Of a stretch of 64,000 nt of DNA, positions 35,367 through 62,732 are shown one piece after another. The stretch covers positions 1-64,000 of the forward strand of contig NZ_MTQO01000031.1 of assembly GCF_001984155.1 (NCBI RefSeq), given 5' to 3'. This DNA comes from Actinosynnema sp. ALI-1.44 (GTDB taxonomy: Bacteria; Actinomycetota; Actinomycetes; Mycobacteriales; Pseudonocardiaceae). How positions within the stretch are numbered: the stretch's first letter is position 1; the number at the start of each line of letters is the position of its first letter. The notes under the pieces are model-generated. The model was not told where the DNA came from. It did no database searches and saw nothing but the letters and a program-made list of their open reading frames with translations. The translations under genes were made by a program, and so were the position numbers.

Positions 35367-36587
35367 CTAGACGGAAACCGGCGCGTGCCGGGGGAACCGG
35401 CGCAGAACCGGGCTGAGGGTGACGAGCAGCGATATCGCGGCCATGCCCGCGGTGCACCAGAGCACCGCGACCGTGCCGTCGACGAATTCGACGAGCAGAC
35501 CGCCCACGGCGGGCCCGGCGGCGGCCGCGGAGCCGACGAAGACGTTCATCACGCCGCTGAGTCGCCCGCGTAGCTCGTCAGGGGTGAGCAACAGCTGGTG
35601 TGTGTTGATGGTCGTGTTGGCGGTCGGCGCGAGGAACGACATTCCGGCGAACAGCGCGCCGAGGAGGTATCCGTTGTGCGCCAGGAGCGTCAACGGTGTG
35701 AGCACCGTGACCATCCAGAACACGGCCATGATGGACACCCAGGGGTGCAGCACGCGGTGCAGGGTCGGCGCGACCAGTGAGCCGAGCACACCGCCGACGC
35801 CGAGCATGGCGGCCATCAGGCCGATCTGCCCGGCAGGCACTCCCTTGCCGTCCGCCAGCACGATGATCACGATGTAGAAGGCGTTGAAGAAGAAGTTCAG
35901 GCTCACGGCGCACAAGGCCGTCACCCGGACGTGCCGGTGGCTCCACACCCACCGCAGCCCTTCGACCATCTCCTTGCCGATGTTGCCGATCGGCGTGCGT
36001 TCGACCTTACGCGGCGGGACGCGCAGAAACACCAGCGACACCAACGAGATCAGGTGGGTGATCGCGTCGACCACGAACGGCACGACCCGGCCGATCGCGA
36101 AGAGCACCCCGCCGAGCGCGGTCCCGGCCATCTGGCCGACCGACGACCGAGCCGCGTTCAACGAGATCGCCGTGGCCAGTTGCTCGTCCGGCACCAGCCG
36201 GGGCAGGCACGCGTCCTCGGCCGGTTCGAACAACGCCCGGCACACGCCCAGCACCACCGCCACCAGCACCATGTGTGCCAAGGAAGCGTTGTCCCACCAC
36301 AGGGCCAGTGCGAGGCTGCCGACCGCGAGTGCCATCACGGCCTCGCACCACAGCATGATCTTCTTGCGGTCCCAGCGGTCGACGAGCGCACCGGCAGGCA
36401 GCCCGGCCACGAGTTGCGCGGCCGCGTCGGCGCCGAGCACCAGACCCGACGCCGCCGGTGAACCCGTGATCGCCAGCACCAGCAACGGGAACGCGATCAT
36501 GGTCGTGCTGAAGCCGACCTCGGACACCGCCTGCCCGGTCCACAGCAGGGTGTAGTTCCGGTTGCGCCGCAGGGGAACGACTGTCAT
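35367..36587 (-). CDS. MFS exporter (EntS/MFS_3 type)
   Basis: 406 aa from ATG 36587, which overlaps the NRPS stop (ATGA) and has GAGGAG 5 nt upstream; a GTG 6 nt earlier is less likely. It is a 12-helix protein of the enterobactin-exporter branch: [20 protein letters not shown] at the start, [14 protein letters not shown] in the first loop, [18 protein letters not shown] in the central region. Its place in the operon makes it the probable exporter of the peptide and a self-protection factor. Confidence 0.9.
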
Positions 36588-61200: not shown

Positions 61201-62732
61201 ACGTCCGCCCAGATCCGGGCCAGTGCCCGCTCGGCGTCGGTGCGCGGTTCGACGTACGACGGACCGGCCTCCACGACCGGCGCGGGCAACGCGGCACGGT
61301 CCAGCTTGCCGTTGGGGCTCAGCGGGAATTCGCGCAACACGACGAACGCCGCCGGAACCATGTACTCGGGCAGCACGTCCGCGACCCAGTCGCGCAGGTC
61401 CGGCTCGCCGGACGAGGTCACGTACGCCACCAGCCGTTTGAGGCCCTGGTCGACGCGGGCGATCACCACGGCGCCGTCCACCTCGGGGTGGCCGCGCAGC
61501 ACCGTCTCGATCTCCCCGGGTTCGATCCGGTGGCCGCGGATCTTGACCTGGTGGTCGGCCCGGCCGACGAACTCCAGCTCACCCGTCGCGGTCCAGCGGA
61601 CCACGTCCCCGGTGCGGTACATCCGGCTGCCGGGCGGTCCGAACGGGTCCGCGACGAACCGGGAAGCCGTCAGGCCCGGCCGGTTGAGGTAGCCACGAGC
61701 CAGGCCGACACCGGATACATAGAGCTCGCCCGACGACACCGGGTGCAGCGTTTCGTCCAGCACGTACGCGGTGGTGTTCCAGATCGGGCCGCCGATGGGC
61801 GGGGCCGTCTCCCCCGGCACCAGCGGCTCGCTCCAGGTGGCGACCACGGTGCACTCGGTCGGGCCGTACGCGTTGATCATCCGCCGTCCCGGCGCCCAGT
61901 GGCGGACGAGTTCGGCGTCACAGGCGTCGCCGCCGACGATCACGCAGCGGAAGTCCGGCAGCGCGGTGGCCGCCGACGGCGGCACGGTCGCCAGGGCGAC
62001 CGGCGGGATGAGGGCGTGGGTGACGCGCGAACGGCCGAGTACTTCGGCAAGTCGCTCGCCCAGGAGCGGGCCGGGCGGCGGCACGACCAGTGCCGCGCCC
62101 GCGGGCAGCGACATGCACAGCTCCAGCACGGAGGCGTCGAAGCTCGGCGAGGAGAACTGCAGCACGCGGTCACCCGGCCGGACGCCGAACCGGTCGATCT
62201 CCGCCGCGGAGAAGCTGGCCAGGCCGCGGTGGGTGACGACGACGCCTTTCGGACGGCCCGTCGAACCGGACGTGTAGATGACGTAGGCGGGGTGATCCAC
62301 CCCGACGTCGACCCGCGGCGACCACGGCGGCATCTCGTCGATCGCCGGATCGCGCAGGTCGGCGCGGGTGAGCGTGAGCACGGGAGCGGCGTCGGCCAGC
62401 ATCATCTCGACGCGTTCGGCCGGGTAGTCCGGGTCGACCGGCAGGAACGCGGCGCCAGCCTTCAGCACGGCCAGTTGAGCGACGACGATGTCGGCCGATC
62501 GGGGCAGCAGCAGCGCGACGACGCGCTCCGGGCCCGCGCCGCGGTCGACGAGCAAGTGGGCGAGCCGGTTGGCCCGCTCGTCCAGCTCCGCGTATCTGAT
62601 GACGGTGTCGTCGTACCGGATCGCCGGTAAGCCCGGCGTGCGCTCGACCTGCCGTTCGAACATTCCAGAAAATGTAAGCGGGGCCACTCGGACGTTTTTC
62701 CCCGCACCAAGGACAGCATTGTTCGACAGCAT
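55227..62732 (-). CDS. Three-module NRPS (A-T, C-T-E lacking A, C-A-T)
   Basis: 2,501 aa. A1 about residues 18-490, T1 LGGDS near 528, C 574-980 (HHIVTDGWS), then directly T2 near 1034, E 1085-1465 ([10 protein letters not shown]), C 1500-1910 ([23 protein letters not shown]-donor type), A 1935-2400, T3 near 2445. It begins with an A domain and no starter C, so it is the initiating synthetase and the first residue is not predicted to be acylated. The second module has no adenylation domain. The C-terminus ([17 protein letters not shown]) is a short charged helix that can dock onto the next synthetase. The ATG at 62732 has AAGG about 10 nt upstream, weak but the only in-frame choice that keeps the A domain whole. 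Confidence 0.95.
58330..61015 (-). other. NRPS module 2: C-T-E without adenylation domain
   Basis: The C domain has an intact HHIVTDG and ends near residue 980. Only a linker of about 35 residues ([13 protein letters not shown] to [14 protein letters not shown]) separates it from the T domain. No A-domain motif (YTSGSTG, GELY or the K-containing A10) occurs here, although the frame is open throughout. T2 (ELGGDS) and E ([10 protein letters not shown]) look functional, so this module must be loaded from elsewhere, and its residue becomes D. Confidence 0.88.
61020..62732 (-). other. NRPS module 1: A-T loading module
   Basis: The A domain starts at residue about 18 ([11 protein letters not shown]) with [14 protein letters not shown] near 150 and NAYGPTE; T has FLGGDS near 528. 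The pocket code read by eye is DALLIGAVV, the same as module 8. It resembles a Tyr code (DALVTGAVV) at seven of nine positions, so an aromatic or large aliphatic residue is likely. Not epimerised. Confidence 0.72.

What the first reader, a model, noticed from the sequence alone, without database searches (positions are those of the whole stretch)
36584..62732. Eight-module line with epimerases at 2, 4, 6 and 8: a strictly alternating L,D octapeptide
Seen: A-T / C-T-E / C-A-T // C-A-T-E / C-A-T / C-A-T-E / C-A-T / C-A-T-E, with active-site motifs intact in every C, T and E domain. C domains after E are of the D-donor form and the rest of the L-donor form, so the pattern is internally consistent. 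Known: strictly alternating stereochemistry is rare in nature (linear gramicidin is the textbook case), and synthetic cyclic D,L-octapeptides stack into membrane-active nanotubes. Inference: if head-to-tail cyclised, this product would be a natural counterpart of those peptides.
Basis: partly seen in the sequence, partly recalled or inferred. Interest (0 to 1): 0.88.

Follow-up and report, generated by a model that had tools for sequence, protein, structure and literature searches.

The report
Alternating L,D cyclic octapeptide assembly line
A soil bacterium carries an enzyme assembly line that is predicted to make a ring of eight amino acids of strictly alternating handedness, with a greasy side and a probably charged side, the same layout as laboratory-designed rings that stack into membrane-piercing tubes; close copies of the line exist in related bacteria.

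Summary
In detail: two collinear NRPS genes encode A-T / C-T-E / C-A-T // C-A-T-E / C-A-T / C-A-T-E / C-A-T / C-A-T-E, with intact motifs and C domains of matching donor type. Two further facts decide the case. (1) The gene upstream is a SurE/Ulm16-type PBP thioesterase, a head-to-tail cyclase class joining a D C-terminus to an L N-terminus, which modules 8 and 1 supply. (2) Module 2 has no A domain, and this is conserved: 28 of 28 complete A-less lines read have E at 2, 4, 6, 8 and a cyclase gene. An Actinoplanes line of the same layout keeps A2, with the pocket class of A1; 11 lines keep a stub, shown in six to be an A remnant without the catalytic lysine. A1 most likely loads T1 and T2. Pocket codes suggest aromatic-aromatic-small-(three probably cationic)-Val-aromatic: a polar block on an alternating ring, as in synthetic antibacterial D,L-octapeptides. 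In one relative the pattern is shifted by one residue, which would invert every centre. Against: two relatives that keep A2 have unlike codes at 1 and 2; product, residues and activity are undemonstrated.

The parts
62812..64000 (-). PBP-type thioesterase (SurE/Ulm16 family cyclase); the ORF continues past the window to contig position 64098 (428 aa)
   Evidence: PF00144 1.7e-55; SurE 6ksu 5.3e-65, Ulm16 8fek 1e-51; S-x-x-K, YSN and HDG motifs
55227..62732 (-). NRPS 1: A1-T1 / C2-T2-E2 / C3-A3-T3 (modules 1-3)
61269..62666 (-). A1, pocket code DALLIGAVVK (aromatic, Phe/Trp-like); proposed to load T1 and T2
   Evidence: pocket compared with PMC7565604
61041..61241 (-). T1
59751..60989 (-). C2, L-donor type, HHIVTDG; lacks about 11 residues of a late loop, as do the 4 Kibdelosporangium orthologues
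59523..59723 (-). T2, carrier of the module without an A domain; 9 residues between the C2 and T2 HMM ends
58311..59489 (-). E2
56964..58250 (-). C3, D-donor type
55515..56915 (-). A3, code DVFSVAAVYK by alignment (residue unsure)
55281..55484 (-). T3
36584..55222 (-). NRPS 2: C4-A4-T4-E4 / C5-A5-T5 / C6-A6-T6-E6 / C7-A7-T7 / C8-A8-T8-E8 (modules 4-8)
53864..55102 (-). C4, L-donor type
52433..53806 (-). A4, code DTLDMGFVDK (probably cationic)
50927..52159 (-). E4
49661..50866 (-). C5, D-donor type
48266..49612 (-). A5, code DTLDMGFVDK
46703..47992 (-). C6, L-donor type
45344..46687 (-). A6, code DTLDMGFVDK
43838..45085 (-). E6
42551..43777 (-). C7, D-donor type
41105..42502 (-). A7, code DAYWWGGTFK (Val)
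   Evidence: same code given as Val for PstD in PMC9113097
39551..40837 (-). C8, L-donor type
38126..39505 (-). A8, code DALLIGAVVK (same code as A1; 67% identical to A1)
36593..37855 (-). E8, terminal epimerase; no TE domain follows
35367..36593 (-). MFS exporter, overlaps the end of NRPS 2 by 10 nt
   Evidence: PF07690 3.3e-44; conserved beside the line
35169..35351 (-). MbtH-like protein, 60 aa
   Evidence: PF03621 3.9e-21; reading frame checked

Best explanation
The operon (cyclase, two NRPSs, exporter, MbtH) makes a head-to-tail cyclic octapeptide whose residues alternate L,D all round the ring: L-Ar1, D-Ar2, L-small3, D-B4, L-B5, D-B6, L-Val7, D-Ar8 (Ar = aromatic, B = probably cationic). 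A1 activates the aromatic residue and loads both T1 and the A-less T2; E2, E4, E6 and E8 invert every second residue; C3, C5 and C7 take D-donors; the PBP-type thioesterase takes the D-residue from T8 and closes it onto the L-amino end. Shown: domains, motifs, C types, gene order, conservation. Inferred: loading of T2 by A1, residue identities, cyclisation, export, and a membrane-directed role.
For: Architecture and motifs. C types. Adjacent cyclase: SurE 5.3e-65, Ulm16 1e-51; lines of this class bring an L-residue first and a D-residue last (passages of PMC7565604; SurE needs a C-terminal D-residue, passages of PMC11735501). 28 of 28 complete A-less lines have E at 2,4,6,8. Purifying selection on C2-T2-E2: dN/dS 0.19, 0.17, 0.30 against G005, G006, G002. 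The same eight-module alternating line in Actinoplanes utahensis has A2, code DALLVGAVVK, the class of A1. A stub of 92-106 aa between C2 and T2 in 11 lines; in the six scored it is the C-terminal part of an A domain, E 2e-20 to 8e-24, without the NGK lysine. No further A-domain ORF found in the 28 loci. Precedent: LugC has one A, two T and three C and is proposed to add three valines (passages of PMC8210680).
Against: No product is known. A1 loading T2 is inferred. Of seven relatives that keep A2, one (G395) has aromatic-type codes at 1 and 2, four (G003, G007, G088, G398) have Val-like codes at both, and two differ: G397 aromatic-type then Val, L017 aromatic-type then DVFSVAIVYK. So position 2 need not equal position 1. 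Codes of A3 and A4-A6 are weak. C2 lacks part of a loop. In 22 of 108 family E domains the Gly of HHxxxDG is Ala or Ser, 21 of them at E6; the window's four are unchanged. Some PBP-type cyclases also take a C-terminal Gly (passages), so the cyclase alone does not prove a D end.
Confidence: 0.74

Rival explanations
1. Module 2 is charged by a different A domain (A3, A8 or one elsewhere in the genome), so position 2 carries another residue; alternation and cyclisation stand.
For: The genome holds many other NRPS genes (75 C-domain matches). G397 and L017 carry different codes at positions 1 and 2.
Against: No extra A-domain ORF found in the 28 loci read (40 kb each, the window 64 kb). Where A2 survives in a strictly alternating octamer (Actinoplanes) it has the A1 class of code. 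In Allokutzneria module 3 is A-less too, and G002 has an A1-class A domain at that position.
Confidence: 0.15
2. Module 2 is dead or skipped and the product is a heptapeptide.
For: No A domain in module 2; C2 lacks a late loop segment.
Against: C2, T2 and E2 keep their motifs and are under purifying selection; C3 is D-donor type, and 84 of 84 post-E C domains of the 29 family loci typed so. Skipping would put L next to L.
Confidence: 0.08
3. An ordinary PBP-TE cyclic peptide with a specific protein target; alternation is incidental and no tubes form. (This concerns function and can hold together with the best explanation.)
For: Surugamides and pentaminomycins use the same cyclase class and are not described as tubes in the passages seen.
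Against: E at 2,4,6,8 is kept in 28 of 28 lines while codes at 3, 5 and 7 vary, and one line appears to invert every centre while keeping the side-chain order, which a chiral target would not easily tolerate.
Confidence: 0.4
4. A decayed or silent cluster.
For: Expression untested.
Against: All 26 domains are present with their motifs and module 2 has dN/dS 0.17-0.30.
Confidence: 0.05

Closest known systems
Surugamide A line (SurA, SurD + SurE)
   Same: Eight-residue ring, four E domains, trans PBP-type cyclase, L first and D last
   Different: Configuration L-D-L-D-L-L-D-D with E in modules 2, 4, 7 and 8 (passages of PMC11012974), not strictly alternating; here module 2 has no A domain and three probably cationic residues lie together
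Lugdunin (fibupeptide, Staphylococcus lugdunensis)
   Same: Cyclic, alternating D,L; one A domain proposed to serve several residues (LugC); reported nanotube channels; enantiomer as potent
   Different: Seven residues, reductase release and thiazolidine ring, not PBP-TE (passages of PMC8210680 and PMC11045845)
Synthetic cyclic D,L-alpha-octapeptides (KQRWLWLW, RRKWLWLW)
   Same: Eight residues, alternating configuration, three polar residues together then hydrophobic ones
   Different: Synthetic; here sequence and activity are only predicted (passages of PMC9575517)
Linear gramicidin synthetase
   Same: L,D alternation along the chain (recalled); LgrA holds the top PDB matches of A1 and A4
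   Different: Fifteen residues, linear (recalled); here a ring closed by a separate cyclase
Actinoplanes utahensis line (L072/G395)
   Same: Cyclase, eight modules, E at 2,4,6,8, D-x-W-D codes at 4-6, aromatic-type codes at 1 and 8
   Different: Keeps the A domain of module 2; Ser-type codes at 3 and 7 (Ser recalled)

Membership tests
NRPS lines cyclised by PBP-type thioesterases | Stand-alone PBP-type TE gene with Ser-x-x-Lys, Tyr and His motifs beside the NRPS | tested here: met
   SurE 5.3e-65; SIGK, YSN, HDG present
NRPS lines cyclised by PBP-type thioesterases | No cis TE; last module ends in E; first module has no E (L-residue) | tested here: met
NRPS lines cyclised by PBP-type thioesterases | Head-to-tail cyclisation by the enzyme | not testable with these tools
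   needs the enzyme assay
Surugamide type by configuration (LDLDLLDD) | E domains in modules 2, 4, 7 and 8 | tested here: not met
   E at 2, 4, 6 and 8; surugamide pattern
Strictly alternating L,D peptides | E in every second module and a D-donor C domain after each E | tested here: met
Strictly alternating L,D peptides | Measured configuration of the product | not testable with these tools
   no product
Lugdunin-type fibupeptides | Terminal reductase and thiazolidine ring | tested here: not met
   the line ends in E8, no further domain found
Lines in which one A domain serves several T domains | A-less module in an otherwise complete line | tested here: met
   module 2; 28 of 28 lines
Lines in which one A domain serves several T domains | The donor A domain charges the orphan T | not testable with these tools
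   needs the loading assay
Self-assembling cyclic D,L-peptide nanotubes | Even-numbered alternating ring | tested here: inconclusive
   predicted from domains only
Self-assembling cyclic D,L-peptide nanotubes | Stacking in membranes | not testable with these tools
   needs the compound

The most novel reading that the evidence does not exclude
Pseudonocardiaceae and a few other actinobacteria evolved a family of cationic, amphiphilic, strictly alternating cyclic D,L-octapeptides that stack into membrane tubes, a natural counterpart of the synthetic antibacterial rings. Because the target is achiral, selection keeps the alternating ring and its polar block but not its handedness: in relative G002 the A-domain order is shifted by one module, so the predicted ring has nearly the same side-chain order with all eight centres inverted. 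The family also shows an A domain eroding in parallel (full, stub, gone) while its neighbour A1 takes over.
Probability: 0.35. Interest if true: 0.9.

Novelty: new variant of a known kind. Interest (0 to 1): 0.76.

Why it matters
If the prediction holds, nature makes the class of ring that chemists designed as antibacterial nanotubes, in a family (28 complete lines read here) that is short enough to synthesise. The window/G002 pair would test directly whether the target is achiral. The series of A2 states (present; stub without the catalytic lysine; absent) is a natural case of NRPS modules coming to share one adenylation domain, which bears on engineering such lines.

Tried and rejected
Considered and rejected: (a) chance alternation: same pattern in 28 of 28 A-less lines. 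(b) A frame error hiding A2: 9 residues separate the C2 and T2 HMM ends, and the four Kibdelosporangium orthologues also lack it. (c) A trans A domain coded beside the line: no further A-domain ORF in the 28 loci (matches under about 120 HMM positions were ignored). (d) A cis TE: none found.

Weak points of the codes: exact-code literature searches found only DAYWWGGTF. Position 239 of A4-A6 is unsure by one residue (ungapped hand reading E, alignment L; notebook), and my hand reading of A3 (DVFGLAAVYK) differs from the aligned one. 'Cationic' for A4-A6 rests on Asp at 278 and 331 and a recalled likeness to the poly-lysine synthetase code; Gln cannot be excluded. Ser and Thr codes are recalled (a near-identical Thr code, DFWNVGMVHK, is in PMC9113097). 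PMC9866976 gave no codes. An even sample of the class found the C-T-E module at 1e-140 in 1 of 394 genomes, the window's own.

Rows dropped before counts: G012 (contig cut) and G009 contig C20 (a different line, no cyclase found) are not in the 28; one search listed 29 lines, of which G088 is a nine-module line with A2 and not a member, and I subtracted it from the printed tallies. C and E domains covering 330 HMM positions or fewer were left out, so E2 of G008 and G011 is not listed there. Searches used 29, 29 and 28 family loci, without G075.

Literature: the ten searches covered an open-licence PMC library only; none of the listings named this family. All papers cited were seen as listing, abstract or passages, none as a whole text.

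Full report
WHAT WAS CHECKED. The window is positions 1-64000 of contig C26 of an 11.7-Mb genome. A same-genus genome (G003) has a contig of 287,736 bases that equals in length, and in domain string, a named Kibdelosporangium persicum contig, so the genus is most likely Kibdelosporangium. Two reverse-strand ORFs, 2501 and 6212 aa, lie 4 nt apart. Pfam and HMMs built from the window's own domains give A1-T1 / C2-T2-E2 / C3-A3-T3 and C4-A4-T4-E4 / C5-A5-T5 / C6-A6-T6-E6 / C7-A7-T7 / C8-A8-T8-E8.

C DOMAIN TYPES. From 250 C domains of other loci, those following E (91) or T (78) were split by locus into training and test halves. The two HMMs were right on 84 of 85 test domains. In the window they call C2, C4, C6 and C8 L-donor and C3, C5 and C7 D-donor; in the 29 family loci of that of 84 post-E and 84 of 84 post-T domains fit, and 28 of 28 N-terminal C domains are L-donor type. 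The loci were found by likeness to the window's module 2, so they are no random sample of NRPSs.

THE CYCLASE. The gene upstream (62812-64098 on the contig) is a PF00144 protein whose best solved relatives are SurE (5.3e-65) and Ulm16 (1e-51). Ser-x-x-Lys, Tyr-Ser-Asn and His-Asp-Gly are present. The position aligned with SurE Gly235, which lines the pocket for the C-terminal D-residue (passages of PMC11735501), is Gly; this mapping assumes a numbering offset of 20 taken from the recalled catalytic Ser63. The same motifs and Gly are in 31 of 31 cyclase sequences aligned (28 family loci and 3 others), but for one YSS. Published lines of this kind start with an L- and end with a D-residue (passages of PMC7565604), though some of the enzymes also take a C-terminal Gly. 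Modules 1 and 8 here supply L and D, so the ring junction continues the alternation.

THE OPERON. Downstream lie an MFS exporter overlapping NRPS 2 by 10 nt and an MbtH gene. Among the 28 family loci examined, an MFS relative is found in 27 and MbtH in 26 (neither in the cut contig G012; no MbtH in Allokutzneria).

THE MISSING A DOMAIN. Module 2 is C-T-E with 9 residues between the HMM ends of C2 and T2. In the genus, 4 of the 7 other genomes have the same contiguous module. In 390 genomes of the family, 40 (the window's included) match C2-T2-E2 at 1e-155 or better, many rows covering T-E only. Of lines read in full, 28 A-less ones were complete, the window included: 28 of 28 have E at 2, 4, 6 and 8 and a cyclase gene. 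C2-T2-E2 is under purifying selection: dN/dS 0.19, 0.17 and 0.30 against three orthologues.

HOW IT AROSE. Actinoplanes utahensis (G395) has the same eight-module alternating line and cyclase but keeps A2, whose code DALLVGAVVK is of the A1 class. In the 11 Saccharothrix, g8 and Allokutzneria lines 92-106 residues stand between C2 and T2; in the six scored, this stretch matches the C-terminal part of the A HMM (within positions 354-457 of 459, E 2e-20 to 8e-24), and the printed sequences lack the NGK lysine motif. In the other 17 lines 9-25 residues remain. A tree of C2-T2-E2 (35 rows) puts the A-less Kibdelosporangium clade and the A-less Thermomonosporaceae contig (G012) on the side of the A-keeping rows, apart from the stub-bearing and g4/g6 lines; its well-supported branches force at least 3 changes of the A-less state. 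Parallel loss is therefore likely, but several branches are long, six rows are compositionally odd, and the root is a midpoint, so the number of losses is open.

WHO LOADS T2. A1 is the simplest donor: it sits in the same protein, no other A-domain ORF was found in the 28 loci, and the A2 of the intact alternating relative has its class. LugC of lugdunin, with one A, two T and three C, is a published precedent (passages of PMC8210680). Against: of seven relatives that keep A2, one has aromatic-type codes at both places, four Val-like at both, and two (G397, L017) unlike codes.

RESIDUES. A1 and A8 read DALLIGAVVK; a pocket given as representative for Phe/Trp is D-A-L-V-M-G-A-V (passages of PMC7565604), six of eight alike. 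A7 reads DAYWWGGTFK, given as Val for PstD (PMC9113097). A4-A6 read DTLDMGFVDK, with Asp at 278 and 331, suggesting a cationic side chain; this is inference. A3 is unsure. Across the 28 lines (G088 subtracted), position 1 is the aromatic-type code in 28 and position 8 in 27; the DT-D code stands at 4 in 27, at 5 in 25 and at 6 in 28; position 3 is Ser-, Thr- or DVFS-type in 26; position 7 is aromatic-, Thr- or Val-type in 25. So most rings would carry three polar residues together with hydrophobic ones around, the layout described for synthetic antibacterial D,L-octapeptides (passages of PMC9575517).

THE SHIFTED RELATIVE. In G002 the codes read aromatic, (none), aromatic, aromatic, DT-D, DT-D, DT-D, Val. 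Its C2, T2, E2, C3, C8, T8 and E8 best match the window's domains of the same position, while A4 best matches the window's A8 and A8 the window's A7; some inner domains do not match by position either (T4 to T8, C7 to C5, T7 to T5). Written as rings, and taking position 2 as aromatic in both, the two side-chain orders agree but for one residue, while every position has the opposite configuration. Lugdunin's enantiomer is as potent as lugdunin (passages of PMC11045845); an achiral target would explain both. This rests on predicted codes.

COMPARISON. By the features testable here it is a PBP-TE NRPS line. It is not of the surugamide configuration type (LDLDLLDD) and not a lugdunin-type line (no reductase). 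Alternation in a natural ring is known from lugdunin, so the kind is not new; the eight-residue version closed by a PBP-type cyclase, with an A domain apparently shared by two modules, in a family of at least 28 lines, is the new variant. The ten paper searches (listed in Tried and rejected) showed no paper describing it; the library holds open-licence papers only.

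Noticed in passing
34271-35142 (-): A patatin-like phospholipase gene lies in two different reading frames here, while four Kibdelosporangium relatives carry it as one ORF downstream of the same operon: a frameshift or a sequencing error.
   Followed up: partly
G000 contig C48:36996-59428 (L115-L116): The same genome holds a second PBP-type cyclase gene next to another NRPS pair with an unusual E-C-C order.
   Followed up: partly
24948-28127 (+): A 1059-aa ORF joins a FAD-binding monooxygenase-type domain to an NADH:flavin oxidoreductase domain.
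   Followed up: no
22060-24525 (+): An 821-aa protein with TPR repeats and a C-terminal CHAT domain, near a subtilase gene at 18488-20992.
   Followed up: no
L128-L129 (G009 contig C20): A different Actinokineospora line with A-less modules 2 and 3 (ATCTECTCAT then TCATE) and no cyclase found in the stretch fetched.
   Followed up: partly
E6 of 21 family lines: HHxxxDG reads HHxxxDA (DS in G076) at E6 in the Saccharothrix, g4, g6 and g8 lines listed, but not in Kibdelosporangium or Allokutzneria.
   Followed up: partly
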